Source: Saprospiraceae bacterium (GTDB taxonomy: Bacteria > Bacteroidota > Bacteroidia > Chitinophagales > Saprospiraceae). Taken from it: a stretch of DNA of 64,000 nt. Positions 26,686 to 40,515 of this stretch are shown here, one piece after another (the first letter of the stretch is position 1; every line of letters begins with the position of its first letter). The translations under genes were made by a program, and so were the position numbers. The notes under the pieces were generated by a model, which was given only the letters and a program-made list of their open reading frames with translations, did no database searches and was not told the origin of the DNA. The stretch covers positions 1 through 64,000 of the forward strand of contig JAHDIE010000007.1 in NCBI GenBank assembly GCA_020630955.1, read 5' to 3'.

Positions 26686-28095
26686 CTATTTGATTTTTGA
26701 AAAAGTCCTTGTTATTTGCCCCTTTGAATTTGAGCATCTAACAAAATAATTTCCAATCGGTAACTGGTGAATATTTAATTCTTGCTTAGATGAATAAATT
26801 TTTCCAAGGAATACAACGTCACCTTTGTACGAAATTACTTCAAGAGAAGACCCAAGTAATTCTTCATTACATTCTAGTACTATGATATTTTCAGCTGGGT
26901 TCGGATTAATATTTAATTCTGTCAAAAGACTTTTATCATCGGTAGAAGTGGTAAAGTCTAAGTTGGTATACTCAATAATTTGATTGGGTCCATACCCTGG
27001 ATAAGTTTGTCCATTGGTCGCGAAATAAACAGATCCAGTATGTGGATTAATACAGACATCTCTTATCCTCCCAAAATTTTCAAAGAATAATTCCTCAGCT
27101 GTTATTTCTGTACCCTCTTCATTTAGACTCATAACTGATATTCTTGGTTCTGTAATAAATCCAACTCCTCCTAAAATTGATACCAATAATTTACCTTTCC
27201 ATTCAGGAATTGCATTGTGATCATAATATACTAAGTCACTAACCCCGATACATGGAGACCAATCATAGATAGGTTCTATAACATTATTGGCATTACAAAA
27301 ATCAATTTCCACATTGGTATCGCAATAGCCTAATACATTTGCCCAACCATAATTGCCTCCTGATTCTAATATGCTTATTTCATCCGAAACATTGGTGCCG
27401 TGCTCCGTGATGTATAATTTGCCTCCGGGACCATAGCTAATACCTTGTGAGTTCCTGTGTCCAAAGGTGTAAATGTAACTATTAGGAAAAGGATTGTCTT
27501 CAGGTATGCTTCCATCTAAATTGATCCGTAGAAACTTTCCATTTAAGCTACCCATATTTTGTCCATTTTGAGGAATGGTTAAATCACCAGTGGACATTAG
27601 TATTTTCTCATCCATCGTCATCAATAATCTTGATCCGTTATGATATACGCCGCCAGGCAATTCATCTAAAAGTATTTTTTCATTTATGAGTTGATCACCA
27701 TTCCATTCAAAGCTAACCAAACGCTCTTTGATGTTACCATAATTATAGACCACATACAATAATGGATGGTTCTCAAAGTCAGGGTGAAAACACATACCCA
27801 ACATGCCATATTCACTTCCATCTCCTTCATCATCTTCATTGGTTACAATAGAGCGGAAGTCAAGAATTTCTTTTGTATTGCCAGAGTTTGGATTAGTTCT
27901 ATAGATCATACCATTTCTTTGTGTAAACCAAAGATGATCATCTGGCCCCCATGTTAGTTCCCAAGGAATTTGGATGCCGGTTACAAGCTCTTTCTTAGTG
28001 AGTGTTGTACTATCTAGACTTAGCGTATTTTGTCCTATGAGTATGCTTGCAATAATTAAAAGCAGCCCAGTTAACGCAATTTTATTTGGTGTCAT
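26686..28095 (-). CDS. T9SS-secreted PQQ-type sugar dehydrogenase-like protein
   Basis: A 469-residue protein of the glucose/sorbosone dehydrogenase (GSDH) family. A signal peptide (cleavage near LIGQ) precedes a six-bladed propeller in residues 35-375, with family landmarks such as PWELTWGPDDHLWFTQRNG, MLGMCFHPDF, GHRNSQGIS and ITEHGTNVSDEI. The tail (about 388-469, starting NINPNPAENIIVLE) is a type A T9SS sorting domain. Members oxidise sugars with pyrroloquinoline quinone, although many homologues have no proven activity. It overlaps the lysyl-oxidase-like gene upstream by 14 bases, so the two are made from one message and exported by the same route. Confidence 0.88.
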   Translation of the reverse strand: MTPNKIALTGLLLIIASILIGQNTLSLDSTTLTKKELVTGIQIPWELTWGPDDHLWFTQRNGMIYRTNPNSGNTKEILDFRSIVTNEDDEGDGSEYGMLGMCFHPDFENHPLLYVVYNYGNIKERLVSFEWNGDQLINEKILLDELPGGVYHNGSRLLMTMDEKILMSTGDLTIPQNGQNMGSLNGKFLRINLDGSIPEDNPFPNSYIYTFGHRNSQGISYGPGGKLYITEHGTNVSDEISILESGGNYGWANVLGYCDTNVEIDFCNANNVIEPIYDWSPCIGVSDLVYYDHNAIPEWKGKLLVSILGGVGFITEPRISVMSLNEEGTEITAEELFFENFGRIRDVCINPHTGSVYFATNGQTYPGYGPNQIIEYTNLDFTTSTDDKSLLTELNINPNPAENIIVLECNEELLGSSLEVISYKGDVVFLGKIYSSKQELNIHQLPIGNYFVRCSNSKGQITRTFSKIK

Positions 28096-30475
28096 TTACA
28101 ATAAACTTCTTGATGAGTTGCTTGTCACGTCCTGTAACAATGACAAAATACATTCCTTCCTTCCAATCTTTAACATTTACAGAAATTCTTTTTTCAATGG
28201 TCTCTTTGGACAGCATTAATTTTCCATCAGAAGTAAAGAAGCTTATATTTTTTGTTTTAAATTCTTCATTGGTAATGTCTACATTTAAAACCGATCTCGT
28301 TGGGTTAGGGTATACATCGATTGAAGATTCATTGCTGATCTGCTCCAGTGAGGAATAAGGTGTGGCGTAACATGATGTTTCCATCTTAACGGCTACTTTT
28401 TGTAAATTTGCCGCTACTAATACTGGATTTTCAATGACACAAAGCATGGTGTCATTAGGCGTAACTTTAATTTTAATCAATCCTTGCTCATAATTAGATC
28501 TTTCGAGAAAATTGTTTTCAATTGGAATTCCAATAATCTTTCCATTTTCTTGATTAAATCTTATATCAAAAATTTGATCAATCACATCAGTATTTTGATA
28601 TACATCTTCAATATTGGCTCCTTGAATAATGAATTCAAAACCAATCAATGGATCTTGTGGATTAATGATATCTATATAGACGTATTCTGGGTCATTCATC
28701 ATATCATATTTAACATTACATGTCATCGTATCAATGAAGTTATATAACCCACTTGGAAAATAACAATGATCATGTGCACTTGTTCCACCTTCATGTTCAT
28801 GCTCATTGCCATAACTTACACAATTATGAAGTAATGTGGCATCATAGACATCAATCCGATCGTCAACATATAGATCAATACATTGATTGGCGGATTCATC
28901 ATTCAAAATCCCATCGACATAAGAAATAACGTCCTCCACTGAGTAAATCTGATCTAAATTTCTATCTCCTCTTTTTCTTGTCCCGTCGCATATTCCTTGA
29001 CAGTCTTGAAGTGCACTTCCATAAATTTCGCCATTGCAATCTGTGTATGCTTCGCAATTCTCATCTTTAGTCACGATAATTTCTCCTGAAGTTCTATCGA
29101 TATTAATGCAGACTTGCGCAAAATTATTTAAGGTATCTTTTTCAGCTCGACCAAGTGCATCCTTTGCCAAATCAACATTTACTATTGCTACAAAAACATA
29201 ATCTCCATCAGGAATATCAGTGATATCTAACCATTGACAATCTAATCCGGCATCATAAATGTCCGCGCAGCCAGCAGTGATACCCATGTAATTACAGCTA
29301 TATTTTGGTGATACAGAAGATGGACATTCTAAATCCAAGACACAAAATCCATTTTTGTATCCAATCGGGATATACTGTCCATAAGTGTCATAAAGACTGT
29401 ATTGTGCATATCCATCATAGTGATAGTGATTATGACAATTATCATAAGTAAATTGATCTGGCTGTTCTTGAGGATCACCAATGAAGTAATCTTGTGTTCC
29501 AACATTTTCTATCCTAGTTGAAAACCGTATGATATCTCTTTGTCCTACACCTTTAATGCAACCTTCATTAATAAGACACTCATTTGAATTGTAAATGGTT
29601 GTGACATACATAGAGTTATATAATACGAAAGGATTTAACCTAAGGTCAGGACCCTCTGGGCAGTCCGGATCTGAAAAAGATATACAGGATCCATCATCAA
29701 TCGTAGCAAGTGGATTATAATTGCATGATTCTGGGTCAGTACAACCTTCTATAGGACCCAAGTATTCTATTTTAATTTTGGTTTCAGGTCCACAATCCCC
29801 TTCACTTCTAACTCTCAATATATACTCCACATCTTTATTTAAATTGCTAACTGCTTTCGCAAGTTCTCCGCATTCCTCATTGTAATCATTATAGAAACTT
29901 GTCCCTTCTACCGTATTCTCTATTACCTCAGGGCACTCAAGGTAAACGTAGATGGTTGTATTACAGCTTTCTGCATTTTCACAAGTGGATATCAGATATT
30001 GACCTGCCTCATCGACGGTAAAATTAAACCATGCATCAGAAAGGTTAGTAGTAAAATCATTATCTCCAAGAGCAATGGCTCCATCACAATCGAAACCAGG
30101 AGGGCAATTAAAATATGATGATGAAGAAAATCCAAAATCTTCGAAATAATCAACTACTTGACCATTTACAATTAATCTAGCAAAACCATTGGATGTAAAT
30201 CCATCTCCGTAACTATCACTTAACCTAAACTCTGTGCATTCTCCTTCCAAAAAACAAAACTTAAACTCGTGATATGTAGTATCCATCATTTCCGGTGATG
30301 AAACAATGGTGTCCCCATTTATGGAAATAAATGCCCAAGATGTTTCATAGGCATAATAATCAGTTCTTAGCTCCAAAATAATTGAAAGCTCGTTGGGTTC
30401 GCAATCTTGTGCTTGACTTTTAGTATTAAAGCAGAAAAAGACACAAATAAGGATTAGAATGTAATTTTTGTACAT
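28082..30475 (-). CDS. T9SS-secreted lysyl-oxidase-domain protein with dockerin-like segment
   Basis: A 797-residue secreted protein. Order: signal peptide (to about 22); strand domain with DSYGDGF (24-125); pre-peptidase-like domain (126-240); a GCTDPxxCNYNPxAxxDDGSC module (244-264); lysyl oxidase domain (274-460); dockerin-like segment (490-552); cohesin-like domain (about 596-695); type A T9SS tail (718-797). The oxidase domain keeps the copper histidines H348, H350 and H352 in CHNHYH, and K374 (GYKNGFC) and Y407 (CADIYDAGLDCQW), which correspond to the human LOX residues forming lysine tyrosylquinone, plus the QWLDITDIPDGDY block. It should oxidise primary amines of lysines outside the cell. 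Overlaps the sugar-dehydrogenase-like gene. Confidence 0.9.
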   Translation of the reverse strand: MYKNYILILICVFFCFNTKSQAQDCEPNELSIILELRTDYYAYETSWAFISINGDTIVSSPEMMDTTYHEFKFCFLEGECTEFRLSDSYGDGFTSNGFARLIVNGQVVDYFEDFGFSSSSYFNCPPGFDCDGAIALGDNDFTTNLSDAWFNFTVDEAGQYLISTCENAESCNTTIYVYLECPEVIENTVEGTSFYNDYNEECGELAKAVSNLNKDVEYILRVRSEGDCGPETKIKIEYLGPIEGCTDPESCNYNPLATIDDGSCISFSDPDCPEGPDLRLNPFVLYNSMYVTTIYNSNECLINEGCIKGVGQRDIIRFSTRIENVGTQDYFIGDPQEQPDQFTYDNCHNHYHYDGYAQYSLYDTYGQYIPIGYKNGFCVLDLECPSSVSPKYSCNYMGITAGCADIYDAGLDCQWLDITDIPDGDYVFVAIVNVDLAKDALGRAEKDTLNNFAQVCINIDRTSGEIIVTKDENCEAYTDCNGEIYGSALQDCQGICDGTRKRGDRNLDQIYSVEDVISYVDGILNDESANQCIDLYVDDRIDVYDATLLHNCVSYGNEHEHEGGTSAHDHCYFPSGLYNFIDTMTCNVKYDMMNDPEYVYIDIINPQDPLIGFEFIIQGANIEDVYQNTDVIDQIFDIRFNQENGKIIGIPIENNFLERSNYEQGLIKIKVTPNDTMLCVIENPVLVAANLQKVAVKMETSCYATPYSSLEQISNESSIDVYPNPTRSVLNVDITNEEFKTKNISFFTSDGKLMLSKETIEKRISVNVKDWKEGMYFVIVTGRDKQLIKKFIVNDTK

Positions 30476-30651: not shown

Positions 30652-31395
30652 TTAAGCTTTGATTTGTTGTAAAATGGTAAGCTGCGAACGATATGTTTCT
30701 GCGATATTTTTGTTTGTAAAAACTAAATCAGTATCTCCATAATTAATCAATCTCTGATTCAGGAGGATTACTTTGTCAAAATATTCTTTAACTGTAGAGA
30801 GATCATGGTGGACAACCAATAATGTTTTTCCCTTTAGAGCCAGTTTTCTCATGATTTCAATAATTCTATTTTCTGTTGTAATATCAATTCCAACAAAAGG
30901 TTCATCTAGGAAAAATAAGTCTGCTTTTTGTGCTAATGCTCGCGCAATAAATACCCTTTGTTGTTGCCCTCCAGATAATGCGCCAATCTGTCTATCTTTA
31001 AGATCTTCAATCCCCATCTCTTTCAGAGCATTATTGGCAATTTCTTTGTCCTCTTTATTGATTCTAGAAAAGAGTTTTTTGTAAGGATAGCGGCCCATTA
31101 AAACAATGTCATTAACAGTTGCTGGAAATCTCCAATCAATTTCATCTTTTTGAGGCACATAGGCTATCTTTTTCCTTACCTCTTCAATTTGGTTGTTGTA
31201 AACTGTGATCTTCCCAGAATTATATTCAATAAGTCCTAAGATGGATTTGAAAAGGGTAGACTTACCGGCTCCGTTAGGTCCAATCACTCCATATATATGT
31301 CCTGCTTCAATGTCCATATGTATGTTGGTAAGGACTCTTTTGTTACCGTAGTTTATAGATAGTCCATCTATTTCAATGACATGCTTTTTTGACAT
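30652..31395 (-). CDS. Metal (Mn/Zn-type) ABC transporter ATPase
   Basis: A 247-residue ABC ATPase of the MntB/ZnuC type. Walker A is GPNGAGKST, the signature LSGGQQQR, and Walker B LFFLDEPFVG, with the switch histidine in LLVVHHDLS. It would power metal import across the inner membrane. It begins at the last base of the metal-binding protein gene, so it belongs to the regulator / binding protein / ATPase operon. The permease normally encoded next is absent; the following gene is the lysyl-oxidase-like gene. Confidence 0.93.
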   Translation of the reverse strand: MSKKHVIEIDGLSINYGNKRVLTNIHMDIEAGHIYGVIGPNGAGKSTLFKSILGLIEYNSGKITVYNNQIEEVRKKIAYVPQKDEIDWRFPATVNDIVLMGRYPYKKLFSRINKEDKEIANNALKEMGIEDLKDRQIGALSGGQQQRVFIARALAQKADLFFLDEPFVGIDITTENRIIEIMRKLALKGKTLLVVHHDLSTVKEYFDKVILLNQRLINYGDTDLVFTNKNIAETYRSQLTILQQIKA

Positions 31396-32384
31396 CAGTT
31401 TTTCATTTTGATGATTCCAAGAATGAGCAATAAAACCAGGATGATCCCAAGAATTATAAATGTACTTGGATGGGATTCTTTGTCTTTTTTAATTTTAGTT
31501 TCTGCAAATTTGCTTATTGCAAGAGCATTCACAATGATATCTGTGTTGTGTTTGATCATACCGATATATGTTCCTGCCTCAGATTCTTTTTCACCTAATG
31601 AATCAGCGAATAATTCTCCTCCAATTGGAACTTGATTATCATCTGCAAGTCTTTTGATCATTTTAGGATTGATGGTGCTTTCAATGAAAATTGCAGGAAC
31701 ATTTCTTTCTTTAATGACCTTACTTACTCGCATGATATCTGAGCTACGGGCATCAGCCTCTGTCGAAATTCCAAGTATAGCCTCTACATCGATTCCGTAA
31801 GCTTGACCGTAATATGCAAATGCATCGTGCGAAGTAACCAAAATTCTTTGTTGCTCAGGAATGCTTTTAATTTGATCTTGAACATACTTATGTAAATCAG
31901 TTAATTTATTTAAATAATTTGTACAGGCAAGCTCATAAATTTCTTTGTGTTCAGGAAATGTTGAAACCAATGCATCTCTCATATTCTTAACATAAATCAT
32001 GACATTGGCCACATTCATCCAAGCATGAGGGTCAAAGGAATTCTTATATTTTTGAGATCCCAATGTATTGACTCCTTTAGATACAATAATAGATGGGGCA
32101 TCTGATCCTGAATTTGCTATTAATTCACTAATCCAACCTTCAAAGTTTAGTCCATTGATAAAAAAGAGATCCGCAGATTGTACCAATTGAGCATCCCTAG
32201 GTGTGGCTTCATAAATGTGAGGATCACCACCAATGGGCACAATTGTTCTTACATTTACAGTTTCTCCAACCAAATTGTTTGCAATGTCCGCGAGAATTGA
32301 AACGGTACAAACAACTACTGGTTTATCATTTGCCGTCAGGCTAAAATGACAGAGTATAAATAAAAATGCTATAAATTTTCTCAT
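31395..32384 (-). CDS. Metal ABC transporter substrate-binding protein
   Basis: A 329-residue cluster A-I (ZnuA/MntA/PsaA-type) metal-binding protein. The signal peptide ends near SLTA. Likely ligands are the His in GGDPHIYE, the His in DPHAWMN, the Glu in GISTEAD and the Asp in LFADSLG: the His-His-Glu-Asp set usual for manganese or iron binders. There is no His-rich loop of zinc-specific ZnuA. Unusually, it ends in a hydrophobic helix (about 306-326) followed by KMKN, which could anchor it in the inner membrane. It overlaps the MntR-like gene by four bases (ATGA). Confidence 0.9.
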   Translation of the reverse strand: MRKFIAFLFILCHFSLTANDKPVVVCTVSILADIANNLVGETVNVRTIVPIGGDPHIYEATPRDAQLVQSADLFFINGLNFEGWISELIANSGSDAPSIIVSKGVNTLGSQKYKNSFDPHAWMNVANVMIYVKNMRDALVSTFPEHKEIYELACTNYLNKLTDLHKYVQDQIKSIPEQQRILVTSHDAFAYYGQAYGIDVEAILGISTEADARSSDIMRVSKVIKERNVPAIFIESTINPKMIKRLADDNQVPIGGELFADSLGEKESEAGTYIGMIKHNTDIIVNALAISKFAETKIKKDKESHPSTFIILGIILVLLLILGIIKMKN

Positions 32385-33046
32385 TTTATTTTCTTTAAAA
32401 ATATGTTTTCACAGACCTTAGAAGTCAGCAAGGCTTCCTCTTTATTGTTGACCAATAACTTGATGGATTGATCATAGCTGTATTTATGTATTAGTTTTAT
32501 TTCTGTTCCGATGTTAATTCCTACCTGATTCAAATGGTGTAGGAAATCTTTGTCGTGCTTCTTAACACCAACAACAATTCCTACAGATTCATCCTCCATA
32601 GTAGACAGAACTATTTGATTTCGAATGGTGATGGTTCCATGGGGGTCTGGAATTGGATCACCATGAGGATCAAATTTGGGATAGCCAAGATATTTGTCTA
32701 GTCGATCTACCAATTCTAAGGATTGAATGTGCTCCAATTGCTCAGCAATATCGTGCACTTCATCCCAGGCAAAACCCAATTTTTCAACCAAAAAACTTTC
32801 CCATAAACGATGCTTACGCAATAATGACATTGCTTTGGCTGTGCCCGACGGAGATAATTTGACGCCTTTATATTTTTCATAGAGAATCATTTCTTTATTA
32901 CTTAGCTTTCTGAGCATATCAGTTACCGATGCAGCAGTCGTCGACATCTGTTCCGCTATTTGATTGGTTCCCACTAATTCGCGCTTTCCACTCTGAGAAA
33001 TATTAAAGATTGCTTTGATGTAATCCTCTTCGGTTGAAGTAATCAT
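32381..33046 (-). CDS. MntR/DtxR-family metalloregulator
   Basis: A 221-residue regulator. The N-terminal winged helix (STEEDYIKAIFNISQ, MSTTAASVTDMLRKLSN), a metal-binding dimerisation domain (HRLWESFLVEKLGFAWDEVH, AEQLEHIQS) and a C-terminal FeoA/SH3-like domain (about 150-221) are visible. I use the ATG at 33046, where the family's conserved N-terminus begins, rather than the one at 33091. With the metal bound it would repress the operon it heads. A dyad over the promoter's -7 element supports this. Confidence 0.92.
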   Translation of the reverse strand: MITSTEEDYIKAIFNISQSGKRELVGTNQIAEQMSTTAASVTDMLRKLSNKEMILYEKYKGVKLSPSGTAKAMSLLRKHRLWESFLVEKLGFAWDEVHDIAEQLEHIQSLELVDRLDKYLGYPKFDPHGDPIPDPHGTITIRNQIVLSTMEDESVGIVVGVKKHDKDFLHHLNQVGINIGTEIKLIHKYSYDQSIKLLVNNKEEALLTSKVCENIFLKKIK

Positions 33047-33055
33047 AAAAATAAA

Positions 33056-33092
33056 TTTAGACAAATCTAAAAATAATTTAGCAAAGTACAAA
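33056..33092 (-). promoter_or_regulatory. MntR-type operator overlapping promoter
   Basis: On the minus strand TTTG (33092-33089), a 19-base spacer and TAGATTTG (33069-33062) make a good Bacteroidota promoter. The dyad TTTAGACAAATCTAAA (33056-33071, TTTAGA-N4-TCTAAA) covers the -7 element, about ten bases before the start codon of the regulator. This position would give direct autorepression. Confidence 0.7.
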
Positions 33093-36354: not shown

Positions 36355-39300
36355 ATGTTTAGAACCGATAAAGCTAAGCGGTTTTGTATACCCATCTGGT
36401 GTACATTATTATTTATGCTTTTGATTGTCGGGAAATCAAAAGCTCAGACAAGCTGGATGGCCTGTAATAATCAGGTCAATATATCGATGGATGATGACTG
36501 TACAGTTACAGTAACACCCGATATGATTTTGGTAGGTGAGGCAACTTATCCACCACCATATAATGATCTCTCAAATTTTGAGATTCAAATTAGCCCTAAT
36601 GTACCTAACTCCGGCTCAGGAACCGGAATTGTTATTCATTCACCTGGACTTTATTCTGTTACGATTACAGAAACTGTATCAGGATATGCTAACAATTGTT
36701 GGGGCACCTTATTGGTTGAGGACAAATTACCACCAGAAATATTGGATTGCCCATGTCCTGTAGGTAATAATGATCCTGATTGCACATTGAAAGCAACTTG
36801 TGCAGAGATGGAAGAAATGTTAGAAGGCTATGATGAAGTCCTAGTCCCTTCATATACAGATTGTTCTACTACCTATCTTGGATTTCATGATGAAATTATC
36901 GAAAATGGACCATGTTACCCAGCAAAAGTGCATAGAACTTACGTTGTAACTGATGCCTATGGAAATAAGTCTACTTCATGTATCATGGAATATACTGTAG
37001 AACCAATCAACTTATATACTGATATCCACGATCCCCACAGTCCTGTTGAACTTCCTTGTACAAGCGGATACTCAACTACGGATGTATTTAACCATTATTA
37101 CCAGTTGAAACTTGAAGAGCTATTAGCTATTGCAACAACTGAAGAAGAAGAGGAAGAGGCTGAATACCTTGCTACTTTGTATGGTAACAAGTACGCATAT
37201 CCTTCAATAAATGGTACACCAATTACTACCACTGTCTGCAACCTTGCTGTAACAAAATCAGATCTTATTGTTCCAGCTTGCGAAGCATGTCCAGATATTA
37301 AGAAAGTCATTAGAAAATGGACTTATTTAGATTGGTGTAGCGGAGATTCTCATGAATACACTCAATTAATTGTAAATGGTAGCACAGACGGTCCAACCAT
37401 TGTTGCAAATAATGTAACAGCCTCTGTAGACCCTTGGGGATGCTATGCATCTATATTAATGCCACCACCTGAACATCTAAATGATAATTGTTCAGATGCT
37501 GTTAGCTATGATATAACCGGACCTTATGGTGTGATTATCACGGAAACAGAAAGTGGCCAATTCCATGTATCTAATGCTCCTAAAGGTGTACATACCTTCT
37601 ATTATAATGCATATGATTGTTGTGGTCAAGTTAACGCTGTTCCAGTTACAGTGACTGTAGTGGACGCAACACCTCCTGTAGCTATTGCAACCGAAAATAT
37701 CGTTGTCTCATTGACAACTGCAGTGGGAGGTACTGGAATCGCAAAACTTTATGCTGAATCTATTGATAAAGGTTCTCATGATGGATGCGGTCCTGTCAAA
37801 CTTGAAATTAGAAGAGAGGATCAAAATTGTGATATCGTTGGAAATACAACGTTCAACGATGATGAAGATCACAGTTATGATGATGAAGATGATTATGATA
37901 ATGGAGAATTTGTTAAATTCTGTTGTGCAGATTTAGATGCTAATGGCATTGATGAAGATGGAGATGGAATCATCGATTATTCTCAATATAAAGTTTGGTT
38001 GAGAGTATGGGATGATGGTGATATGGATGGATACTATGGATCTGAAGGAGACCATTATAATGAAGCATGGGCTTGGGTTAGATTAGAGAACAAAGTACCA
38101 CCTTCATTGTTATGTCCAGCTGATATTACAGTTGACTGTGAAGTAGATATACATGATTTATCAATTGTCGGTAGTGGTGCTGGTTACAACGCATGTGGTT
38201 CAGAAGGTGTAGATTACACCGATGAGTATCAAGATGGTGGTGCTTGTGGGTATGGAACCATTCATAGAAAATGGTATATTACTGAAAACCCAAGTGCGTA
38301 CTGTGTTCAAGTTATTGAAAGATTAGGACCAGATTATGATACAGACATCACCATAACTTTCCCTGAAGATTTGATTATCAATTGTATGACTGATACCATG
38401 CAAATGCCATACTGGGATGCCCCAGCTTGTAACTTGCTCGCATATAGTTTAGATAGTGATACTTTCTACTTTACAGAAGGGGCATGTCTAAAGATCAGAA
38501 ATGAATGGACAGTTATTGATTGGTGTACTTATAACCCAAATAGCCCATACACTGAGGGTATTTGGGAACACACACAAATCGTGAAAGTTATTGATGAAAC
38601 TGCTCCAGACTTGGCTTCATGTGATCCAATCATGCTAGAAGCTGATGAGGCAACTTGTGAAAACAATGCAGTAATGCTTACTCAGATCGCAGATGACTCA
38701 GGTTCGTGTGGCAGTAATAGAGTAAATTGGACAATTCAAGTAGACCTCTATGGTGATTGGAATTATGACTACACTTTTAGAAGCACTGTTCCGCCTGATC
38801 ATCCAGACTATGTTGCACCAACTACCTCAGGAGGTGAGGTGAAAATAACTTTACCAGATCCTGTAGTAGGAAGTATGGCTACACATAAAGTAAAATGGAC
38901 CGCAACAGATGGTTGTGGAAACGTAAGATCATGTACACAAGATTTTATGGTGGTGGATAAAAAAGCACCCACTCCATATTGTGTAAATGTTAGTTCAGCC
39001 TTAATGGATGATGGAGAAATTGAATTGTGGGCATGTGACTTTGACCTAGGAAGTTTTGACAATTGTTCTAGCAATGAAAACTTGAGATTTACATTCTCAG
39101 ATGTCAATCCTGCAGATGATCCTTTTTATAATGAATCAAGCAGATGTTCAGCAAGAACATTTACATGTGATGATGCACTAAATGATGCTGGCCAGACATC
39201 CCCCGTTGAGGTTTCAGTATATGTATGGGATGAAAAAGATAATTATGATTTCTGTACAGTATACTTAACCCTAGTTGACAATAATGGTGTTTGTGGCGAT

Positions 39301-40515
39301 AGCCTTGCTAATGCAAGAATTGGCGGCCAAATTGTAACCGAGTCCGGAGAAGAACTAACTCAAATTTCTGTAGAGCTTATGAGCTCAATTCCTGAATATC
39401 CTCTAGTAAATAATACAAATGAAAATGGTGAATTTTCATTTTACAATCTTCCAATGTTTATTGATTACGAAGTCACTACAGCAAAGAATGATGGCGCTTT
39501 GAATGGTGTTACAACACTCGATCTAGTGTTAATACAGAAGCATATACTTGACACAAAACCTTTGGATAGTCCATACAAAATGATTGCTGCGGATGCTAAC
39601 AATGACACTAAAATTTCAGCAGTTGATTTGATTCAGCTAAGGAAATTGATATTAGGAATCTATCAAGATTTCCCTAATAACAATAGTTGGAGATTCCCTA
39701 TTAAGGATCAGATTATGGCATTTGATAACCCATGGCCATTTACGGAAGTGATCAATATTGAAGCACTTGCCGAACCTATGATGGACAATGACTTTGTTGG
39801 GGTTAAAATTGGTGACGTAAATGGAACAGCAACGGCAAATCTACTTGGAGATGATACATCTTTTAGATCAGCTGAGAAATTGCAATTATACTTTGAAGAT
39901 TTGATAAGTAATATTGAGTCAGTCAGTGTTCCAGTAAAAATCAATTCCAATGAGTTGTTGAATGGAATGCAGATTACGCTTGAACATCCAGGTGCGGAAT
40001 TGCTACGGATAGAAGGCGCCTCGCTAGATATTTCAGATAACAATTATGTAACAACAGGCTCTTCTACAAGCTTTAGCTGGAGTAGTGGAAAAGCGGTTTC
40101 ATTAAACAATGGAGAGGTGTTATTTACCTTAGTGTTTAAAGGAGATGTTGTTAAAAATATTTTTGGTTCTGATAATAACCTTATTTCAGAGGCATATGTA
40201 GGTGAAAATTTGGAAATAATGGATGTTGAATTTGGACAAAACAAGGATGCATTCGTTAATGAATTGTATCAAAATAGTCCTAACCCTTTTAGTGAATCTA
40301 CAACGATTAGATTTTCATTGGTAAAAGATGGGGACGTTATGGTTAAATTCTACGATGTTTCTGGGAAAATGGTAAAAACAGTTTCAGGAAACTATAAAGC
40401 CGGTATGAATCAATTGACAATCGGTGCAAAAGAACTTGAAGGTTCGGGAGTATTGTATTATCAAATGGAAACAGAAGGCTTTACAGCGACCCGAAAAATG
40501 ATAATTATTGAATAA
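36355..40515 (+). CDS. T9SS-secreted multidomain protein with dockerin and cohesin-like domains
   Basis: A 1386-residue surface protein. A signal peptide (to about SKAQ) is followed by several HYR/Ig-like beta domains (30-980) with many Cys, for example in CPADITVDC and VVDKKAPTPYC. A very acidic, probably calcium-binding stretch lies at about 500-580 (DDEDHSYDDED and GIDEDGDGIIDYSQ). A carboxypeptidase-like beta module (about 985-1040) precedes a dockerin type I pair (1049-1105; VTTLDLVLIQKHIL and DANNDTKISAVDLIQLRKLI). A cohesin-like domain (1175-1292) and a type A T9SS tail (1302-1386, SPNPFSESTTI) follow. Possibly structural or adhesive; no catalytic residues seen. Monocistronic with a terminator. 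Confidence 0.88.
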   Translation: MFRTDKAKRFCIPIWCTLLFMLLIVGKSKAQTSWMACNNQVNISMDDDCTVTVTPDMILVGEATYPPPYNDLSNFEIQISPNVPNSGSGTGIVIHSPGLYSVTITETVSGYANNCWGTLLVEDKLPPEILDCPCPVGNNDPDCTLKATCAEMEEMLEGYDEVLVPSYTDCSTTYLGFHDEIIENGPCYPAKVHRTYVVTDAYGNKSTSCIMEYTVEPINLYTDIHDPHSPVELPCTSGYSTTDVFNHYYQLKLEELLAIATTEEEEEEAEYLATLYGNKYAYPSINGTPITTTVCNLAVTKSDLIVPACEACPDIKKVIRKWTYLDWCSGDSHEYTQLIVNGSTDGPTIVANNVTASVDPWGCYASILMPPPEHLNDNCSDAVSYDITGPYGVIITETESGQFHVSNAPKGVHTFYYNAYDCCGQVNAVPVTVTVVDATPPVAIATENIVVSLTTAVGGTGIAKLYAESIDKGSHDGCGPVKLEIRREDQNCDIVGNTTFNDDEDHSYDDEDDYDNGEFVKFCCADLDANGIDEDGDGIIDYSQYKVWLRVWDDGDMDGYYGSEGDHYNEAWAWVRLENKVPPSLLCPADITVDCEVDIHDLSIVGSGAGYNACGSEGVDYTDEYQDGGACGYGTIHRKWYITENPSAYCVQVIERLGPDYDTDITITFPEDLIINCMTDTMQMPYWDAPACNLLAYSLDSDTFYFTEGACLKIRNEWTVIDWCTYNPNSPYTEGIWEHTQIVKVIDETAPDLASCDPIMLEADEATCENNAVMLTQIADDSGSCGSNRVNWTIQVDLYGDWNYDYTFRSTVPPDHPDYVAPTTSGGEVKITLPDPVVGSMATHKVKWTATDGCGNVRSCTQDFMVVDKKAPTPYCVNVSSALMDDGEIELWACDFDLGSFDNCSSNENLRFTFSDVNPADDPFYNESSRCSARTFTCDDALNDAGQTSPVEVSVYVWDEKDNYDFCTVYLTLVDNNGVCGDSLANARIGGQIVTESGEELTQISVELMSSIPEYPLVNNTNENGEFSFYNLPMFIDYEVTTAKNDGALNGVTTLDLVLIQKHILDTKPLDSPYKMIAADANNDTKISAVDLIQLRKLILGIYQDFPNNNSWRFPIKDQIMAFDNPWPFTEVINIEALAEPMMDNDFVGVKIGDVNGTATANLLGDDTSFRSAEKLQLYFEDLISNIESVSVPVKINSNELLNGMQITLEHPGAELLRIEGASLDISDNNYVTTGSSTSFSWSSGKAVSLNNGEVLFTLVFKGDVVKNIFGSDNNLISEAYVGENLEIMDVEFGQNKDAFVNELYQNSPNPFSESTTIRFSLVKDGDVMVKFYDVSGKMVKTVSGNYKAGMNQLTIGAKELEGSGVLYYQMETEGFTATRKMIIIE

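What the first reader, a model, noticed from the sequence alone, without database searches (positions are those of the whole stretch)
28082..30475. Complete lysyl oxidase domain in a T9SS-exported bacterial protein
Cu ligands (H348, H350, H352) and the two residues that make the lysine tyrosylquinone cofactor in animals (K374, Y407) are all in place, with the QWLDITDIPDGDY block. Lysyl oxidases crosslink collagen and elastin in animals; a T9SS-exported form with dockerin-like and cohesin-like segments could crosslink the cell's own surface proteins or attack host matrix.
Basis: partly seen in the sequence, partly recalled or inferred. Interest (0 to 1): 0.8.

Follow-up and report, generated by a model that had tools for sequence, protein, structure and literature searches.

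The report
Exported bacterial lysyl oxidase with accessories
A bacterium related to the Saprospiraceae encodes a real relative of the animal enzyme that crosslinks collagen, built to be shipped out of the cell and carrying conserved add-on parts; this kind of enzyme was already known in bacteria, but the export route and add-on parts make it a distinct and untested variant.

Summary
The 797-aa ORF (28082-30475, minus) has a lysyl oxidase (LOX) domain (PF01186, E 1.9e-33), a T9SS type A tail, a dockerin pair and a cohesin fold. H348/H350/H352, K374 and Y407 align with the copper histidines and cofactor pair of human LOXL2 and are kept in 109 of 109 LOX rows. LOX in Bacteroidetes has been in print since 2015, so the domain alone is not new. 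Beyond that: (1) 67 of 77 class-A proteins end in a T9SS tail; (2) the block after LOX (dockerin pair, H-x-H...H-x-H-C loop, cohesin) was found only in LOX ORFs: 19 of 19 matches in 60 genomes, in 19 of 21 class-A ORFs; (3) residues 124-239 fold like collagenase collagen-binding (PPC) domains; (4) a GSDH-family gene directly follows LOX in 9 of 81 loci; (5) a second, divergent LOX class keeps the residues in 15 of 15, and in 12 of 15 the 'first histidine' reported missing from bacteria. Best reading: an exported copper/LTQ amine oxidase acting on the bacterium's own matrix. Substrate unknown; host attack unsupported.

The parts
28082..30475 (-). LOX protein, 797 aa
   Evidence: ORF, Pfam, model
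30410..30475 (-). signal peptide, about residues 1-22
   Evidence: hydrophobic start read by eye; helix 2-16 in model; no signal-peptide program run
30110..30403 (-). module 1, residues about 25-122 (DSYGDG beta-sandwich), shared with many other proteins of these genomes; weak fold match to CBM60
   Evidence: 2xfd Z 7.7
29759..30106 (-). module 2, residues 124-239, PPC / collagenase collagen-binding-domain fold
   Evidence: top seven rows all collagenase domains, Z 10.1-11.9
29678..29746 (-). GCTDPESCNYNPLATIDDGSC linker, residues 244-266
   Evidence: read from sequence; conserved in 62 relatives
29081..29656 (-). lysyl oxidase catalytic domain, residues 274-465
29420..29434 (-). copper ligand positions H348, H350, H352 (HNHYH)
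   Evidence: 109 of 109 rows (rows were cut out with an HxHxH motif)
29354..29356 (-). K374, LTQ lysine position
   Evidence: 109 of 109 rows
29255..29257 (-). Y407, LTQ tyrosine position
   Evidence: 109 of 109 rows
28820..28969 (-). dockerin pair, residues 503-552
   Evidence: helices 513-524 and 543-555 in model
28763..28822 (-). Cys-bounded four-histidine loop C552-C571 (H559, H561, H568, H570)
28352..28732 (-). cohesin fold, residues 582-708
   Evidence: Z 10-11 to many cohesins
28091..28324 (-). T9SS type A sorting domain, residues 718-795
   Evidence: 8gl8_D Z 9.7
26686..28095 (-). downstream GSDH-family (PQQ glucose/sorbosone dehydrogenase) protein with T9SS tail; its start overlaps the LOX end by 14 bases
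30652..33091 (-). upstream metal-uptake genes: DtxR-family regulator, ZnuA-type binding protein, ABC ATPase
   Evidence: Pfam for the window; same three genes in order in L055, L057, L070, and the last two in L056 up to its contig end

Best explanation
The gene encodes a copper- and lysine-tyrosylquinone-dependent amine oxidase of the LOX family, exported by the type IX system and displayed on or shed from the outer membrane. SHOWN by sequence and model: LOX domain, five catalytic positions, T9SS tail, PPC-fold module before LOX, dockerin pair, four-histidine loop and cohesin after it. INFERRED: copper binds H348/H350/H352, K374 and Y407 crosslink autocatalytically into LTQ, primary amines (most likely lysine side chains of extracellular proteins, presented by the binding modules) become aldehydes with release of ammonia and hydrogen peroxide, and the aldehydes crosslink the cell's own extracellular matrix. 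The dockerin/His-loop/cohesin block, found here only on LOX, probably serves the enzyme itself (metal loading, cofactor maturation or domain locking) rather than a cellulosome.
For: PF01186 at 1.9e-33; LOXL2 fold match Z 21.3; H,H,H,K,D,Y kept in 109 of 109 rows from two Bacteroidota classes, Streptomyces, Gemmatirosa, a viral contig and human LOXL2 (rows were cut out with an HxHxH motif, so K, D and Y are the independent part); T9SS type A tail in 67 of 77 class-A proteins, window included (66 of 77 by Pfam); block after LOX only in LOX ORFs, 19 of 19 matches at E up to 1e-5; a refolded archaeal LOX is an active, 3-aminopropionitrile-sensitive oxidase of lysine polymers (PMC6452851, abstract); PPC fold of the collagenase type before LOX.
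Against: No activity, copper or quinone was measured. No substrate was found: collagen-like proteins (E up to 0.001) occur in 9 of 18 class-A-bearing genomes and 20 of 42 others (counted), and the one own collagen-like ORF that I read has 0 lysines in its Gly-X-Y part. The archaeal enzyme has relaxed specificity and its host showed no detectable activity. The gene is not universal: PF01186 in 3 of 394 other genomes of an even draw of the phylum, two of these weak.
Confidence: 0.5

Rival explanations
1. A secreted amine oxidase for nutrition or competition: it deaminates amines, peptides or antibiotics outside the cell to win ammonia or make hydrogen peroxide, with no crosslinking role.
For: The archaeal LOX oxidises many small amines and some antibiotics, and its authors propose a modest role in nitrogen supply. 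The neighbour in 9 of 81 loci is a GSDH-family protein, which fits a pair of exported oxidoreductases.
Against: Binding-type modules (PPC fold, DSYGDG module, dockerin/cohesin) and a surface-sorting tail fit a fixed macromolecular target better than free amines; this is an argument from anatomy only.
Confidence: 0.25
2. A structural adhesin or metal-binding surface protein in which the LOX domain is catalytically silent.
For: Several add-on binding modules; a conserved extra histidine loop.
Against: K374 and Y407 are kept over very distant rows, which a dead enzyme would not need.
Confidence: 0.12
3. A host-matrix enzyme that attacks or remodels animal collagen or elastin.
For: Module 2 has the fold of clostridial collagenase collagen-binding domains.
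Against: The PPC fold is common and not specific for collagen (recalled); the profile finds no collagenase in the PDB sequences (best rows HA-70 at E 0.031); none of 80 record titles names an animal host.
Confidence: 0.04

Closest known systems
Human LOXL2 (PDB 5ze3)
   Same: LOX catalytic domain: 191 residues aligned, 32% identity, Z 21.3; copper histidines and K/Y pair in register
   Different: LOXL2 has SRCR domains (recalled) and the first histidine; here PPC fold, dockerin, His loop, cohesin and T9SS tail, and D345 in place of that histidine
Haloterrigena turkmenica LOX (HTU-LOX, PMC6452851)
   Same: prokaryotic LOX, active and inhibitor-sensitive after refolding (abstract, introduction and part of methods, discussion read)
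   Different: no binding modules named in what I read; not compared by sequence here
Bacteroidetes LOX of Grau-Bove 2015 (PMC4448552)
   Same: LOX in Bacteroidetes; copper and LTQ residues widely conserved (passages)
   Different: says most prokaryotic forms (all but three) hold just the LOX domain, and that the first histidine is absent from bacteria; the passages and the discussion part read do not mention T9SS, dockerin, cohesin or a His loop
Streptomyces LOX on plasmids (L166, L167, L168)
   Same: H,H,H,K,D,Y kept; a His/Gly-rich stretch lies outside the catalytic domain, before it
   Different: separate clade (SH-aLRT 99) and other layout; no T9SS-like end seen by eye
ColG/ColH collagen-binding domains (PPC fold)
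   Same: fold of module 2, Z 10.3-11.9 over about 90-103 residues
   Different: 18-19% identity, no profile match by sequence; collagen binding untested

Membership tests
Lysyl oxidase family (PF01186) | domain above curated score | tested here: met
   116 bits vs 20.4
Lysyl oxidase family (PF01186) | three copper histidines | tested here: met
   H348, H350, H352; 62 of 62 full-length rows
Lysyl oxidase family (PF01186) | LTQ lysine and tyrosine in register | tested here: met
   K374, Y407; 109 of 109 rows; aligned with LOXL2
Lysyl oxidase family (PF01186) | LOX fold | tested here: met
   predicted model vs 5ze3 Z 21.3
Lysyl oxidase family (PF01186) | copper content, quinone and inhibitor-sensitive amine oxidase activity | not testable with these tools
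   needs purified protein
Animal-type LOX copper motif | first histidine (human H289) | tested here: not met
   D345 here; 0 of 88 class-A rows have it, 12 of 15 class-B rows do; reported as not needed for copper or activity
T9SS type A cargo | C-terminal sorting domain at the very end | tested here: met
   721-793, E 9.5e-14; TIGR04183
T9SS type A cargo | signal peptide | tested here: inconclusive
   judged by eye only
T9SS type A cargo | secretion in vivo | not testable with these tools
   needs an experiment
Cellulosome-type dockerin/cohesin | dockerin module | tested here: met
   12 of 22 rows match Dockerin_1 at E up to 0.1, window row none; profile vs clostridial dockerins E 0.006
Cellulosome-type dockerin/cohesin | cohesin fold | tested here: met
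   Z 10-11 to many cohesins; fold only, no Pfam match
Cellulosome-type dockerin/cohesin | dockerin-cohesin binding between proteins | not testable with these tools
   needs an experiment
Collagen-binding PPC domain | PPC fold | tested here: met
   seven collagenase rows on top
Collagen-binding PPC domain | family profile match / collagen-contact residues | tested here: inconclusive
   PF04151 not among the matches of module 1-2 rows at E up to 0.1, no collagenase in the profile search; contact residues not compared

The most novel reading that the evidence does not exclude
Bacteroidota evolved a self-sufficient extracellular crosslinking enzyme: a LOX that brings its own copper-capture or cofactor-maturation block (a Cys-bounded H-x-H...H-x-H-C loop between a dockerin pair and a cohesin), found only on LOX proteins in the genomes searched, so that copper loading and LTQ formation can finish outside the cell without an animal-type secretory pathway, and that stiffens a protein matrix independently of collagen. 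The His/Gly-rich stretch on Streptomyces LOX would be a parallel solution.
Probability: 0.25. Interest if true: 0.75.

Novelty: new variant of a known kind. Interest (0 to 1): 0.5.

Why it matters
The two papers on prokaryotic LOX that I read leave its function in the cell open. A conserved exported form with accessory modules found only on LOX gives a concrete, testable system: it could show that enzymatic lysine crosslinking of an extracellular matrix exists in bacteria without collagen, and how a copper/LTQ enzyme is matured outside the cell. It would bear on how the animal matrix enzyme arose and offer new crosslinking biocatalysts.

Tried and rejected
Collagen as general substrate: rejected as a rule, since collagen-like proteins (E up to 0.001) are no commoner with class-A LOX (9 of 18 genomes) than without (20 of 42; counted), and the one own collagen-like ORF that I read (L172, cut by a contig end) has 0 lysines in its Gly-X-Y part and 7 after it. 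LOX and collagen-like matches do occur together in all six genomes of the window's genus, so a genus-level link is not excluded. Other own collagen-like matches (8 in all) were not read.

Block after LOX as a general mobile module: rejected; 19 of 19 matches at E up to 1e-5 in 60 genomes (own included) lie in LOX ORFs. The best other own-genome match to the window's block has E 0.089. The His-loop pattern hit 1 of 661 neighbour ORFs, and that one is a tandem second LOX. Module 1 IS a general module.

The loop has low model confidence (561-567 under 50), so its place relative to the copper site could not be judged.

GSDH as a universal partner: rejected; direct neighbour in 9 of 81 loci (69 of the 80 fetched loci hold at least 1.5 kb downstream), and a 27.5% relative 1.15 kb away in one more.

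Promoter-like and terminator-like sites were not above the shuffled means. Pfam on modules 1-2 gave only weak matches, chiefly GBD_T9SS_assoc (9 of 22, best 0.0013); the PDB profile search gave HA-70 (E 0.031) and an unrelated NDUFS5 (0.032).

Papers: seven searches. One search (lysyl oxidase + type IX secretion) listed one review on another topic; searches found none; one search found 34, 20 listed; one search found 100 with three of four terms, 20 listed, of which one holds 'lysyl oxidase' once and was not opened. This covers only the held open-licence library.
Full report
WHAT IS THERE. The window lies in a 3.97-Mb, 95-contig genome, 95.6% complete; its nearest named relatives are Saprospiraceae MAGs. 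On the minus strand, 28082-30475 encodes 797 aa. Pfam sees a lysyl oxidase domain (309-460, E 1.9e-33) and a T9SS sorting domain (721-793, E 9.5e-14). It is the only PF01186 match in the genome at E up to 0.001.

CATALYTIC RESIDUES. By single-sequence and profile alignment they face the copper histidines and the LTQ pair of LOXL2. In 62 full-length class-A rows, window included, all five are invariant. In a wider set of 109 rows (window, 87 other class A, 15 class B, one viral, one Gemmatirosa, three Streptomyces, human LOXL2) H,H,H,K,D,Y are kept in 109 of 109. The rows were cut out by an HxHxH motif, so for distant rows the histidines are partly a selection effect; K, D and Y are not. The AlphaFold model (pLDDT 84.6, pTM 0.56) matches 5ze3 over 274-484 at Z 21.3. 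I could not measure the K374-Y407 distance, as coordinates are not returned.

SPREAD. PF01186 is in 23 of 60 genomes nearest the window, own included, and in all six of its genus, but in only 4 of 395 (own included) in an even draw of the phylum. Of these 80 titles 76 name Bacteroidota groups, three Sphingomonadales and one just 'bacterium'. With the window's domain as query there was no match in the phage collection and one in plasmids (Gemmatirosa); with the viral LOX as query, eight plasmid records, seven of them Streptomyces.

TWO CLASSES. Of the 36 matches, 21 are strong (class A, with the window) and 15 weak (class B, E 1.9e-8 to 2.6e-5, 25.6 to 34.7 bits, all over the cut-off of 20.4). 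All 15 keep HxHxH, K and D-x-Y. Two were scanned and both end in a T9SS tail; one of the two also has a P-domain and a PKD domain. Class B holds a surprise: the histidine three places before the copper triad (human H289), which the 2015 survey reports as absent from bacteria, is present in 12 of 15 class-B rows and in 0 of 88 class-A rows. On a quick tree of 74 rows class A (53) and class B (15) each sit on one side of a branch (SH-aLRT 92 and 93, neither starred), human LOXL2 outside both. So there is no sign of a recent gift from animals; long branches limit this, and no archaeal LOX was in the tree.

ARCHITECTURE. Residues 25-122: a DSYGDG beta-sandwich that is a shared module (48 of 60 genomes match the profile of residues 22-243; most listed matches outside LOX cover only about its first 105-140 positions), with weak resemblance to CBM60 (Z 7.7). 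Residues 124-239: PPC fold; the top seven rows are all bacterial collagenase domains, Z 10.1-11.9, the next row 9.4. Matches over the whole profile appear only in LOX ORFs among the rows listed (list cut). Then a GCTD linker, LOX, a Cys-rich linker, a dockerin pair, a loop C552-x6-H-x-H-x6-H-x-H-C571, a cohesin fold (Z 10-11) and the T9SS tail. A T9SS type A tail ends 67 of 77 class-A proteins whose end is in hand, window included (66 of 77 by Pfam); four of the 80 loci cut at the 3' end were left out.

A BLOCK FOUND ONLY ON LOX. A profile of residues 470-712 from 22 rows (chosen among 62; all 22 have the four His) was run on 60 genomes: 19 matches at E up to 1e-5, all in LOX ORFs. Of the 21 class-A ORFs, 19 carry it; the two without are G016:C192 and G037:C112. 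The four histidines are kept in 45 to 48 of 62 rows each and as a strict pattern in 60 of 101 rows; the pattern is in 0 of the 659 neighbour ORFs that are not themselves LOX. I read this as a metal or maturation site serving the enzyme; that step is inference. Three of three Streptomyces LOX proteins read have a His/Gly-rich stretch before their LOX domain, a loose parallel.

NEIGHBOURS. Downstream, a GSDH-family protein with its own T9SS tail starts 14 bases inside the end of the LOX gene. Close relatives (48-65% identity) follow LOX directly in 9 of 81 loci, the window included: five of its genus, L058, L062, L064 and L083. Upstream, a DtxR-family regulator, a ZnuA-type binding protein and an ABC ATPase keep the same order in L055, L057 and L070; L056 shows the last two up to its contig end. 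The only PF00950 permease match in the genome lies on another contig.

HOW IT LIKELY WORKS. Shown: domain, residues, predicted fold, tail, modules, joint occurrence. Inferred from established LOX biochemistry: copper binding, self-made LTQ, oxidation of primary amines to aldehydes with peroxide. Inferred with less confidence: peptidyl-lysine substrates in the cell's own matrix. The strongest argument is the export tail plus binding modules; the weakest point is the missing substrate. Collagen is not it in general.

WHAT IS KNOWN. Grau-Bove 2015 (PMC4448552; passages and part 1 of 2 of the discussion read) reports LOX in Bacteroidetes and four other bacterial clades with copper and LTQ residues widely conserved, mostly with simple layouts. 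HTU-LOX (PMC6452851; abstract, introduction with part of the methods, discussion read) shows that a prokaryotic LOX can be active. A red alga secretes a LOX-like protein at pH 6 (PMC6508830; abstract and discussion read). I found no paper on T9SS-exported LOX and 95 of the held library; subscription papers and preprints were not searched.

VERDICT. A real, probably active LOX in an unusual, conserved export and accessory setting: new variant of a known kind.

Noticed in passing
L135:4818-5447 (IMGVR_UViG_3300022562_001652, 113,815-base viral contig): A 209-aa minimal LOX (PF01186, E 4.6e-28) with all six key residues and a lipobox-like start (by eye) sits among phage-type genes (SbcC-like, RusA, UDG superfamily; a weak terminase hit). 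Possibly a phage-borne LOX; no relative found in the phage collection, and only itself in viral contigs.
   Followed up: partly
L021-L034: A divergent second class of LOX in these genomes: 15 of 15 keep HxHxH, K and D-x-Y, and 12 of 15 have the first histidine (human H289 position) that a 2015 survey reports as absent from bacteria.
   Followed up: partly
L090:4510-6915 and L120:3501-5930: Tandem second copies of class-A LOX beside the first.
   Followed up: no
L109, L120, L125: MAGs titled Sphingomonadales carry Bacteroidota-type LOX loci that share neighbour genes with Bacteroidota MAGs such as L098 and L107; probably mislabelled.
   Followed up: no
window 30652-33091: Metal-uptake genes with DtxR-family regulator, binding protein and ATPase but no permease beside them; the genome's one ABC-3 permease match is on contig C41.
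   Followed up: partly
L172 (G000:C4, contig end): Collagen-like Gly-X-Y protein with no lysine in the repeats, in the same genome.
   Followed up: partly
window 36355-40515: 1386-aa T9SS protein with a Pfam dockerin and, by eye, a cohesin-like stretch before its sorting domain, so this tail layout is not confined to LOX, although the LOX block's sequence seems to be.
   Followed up: no
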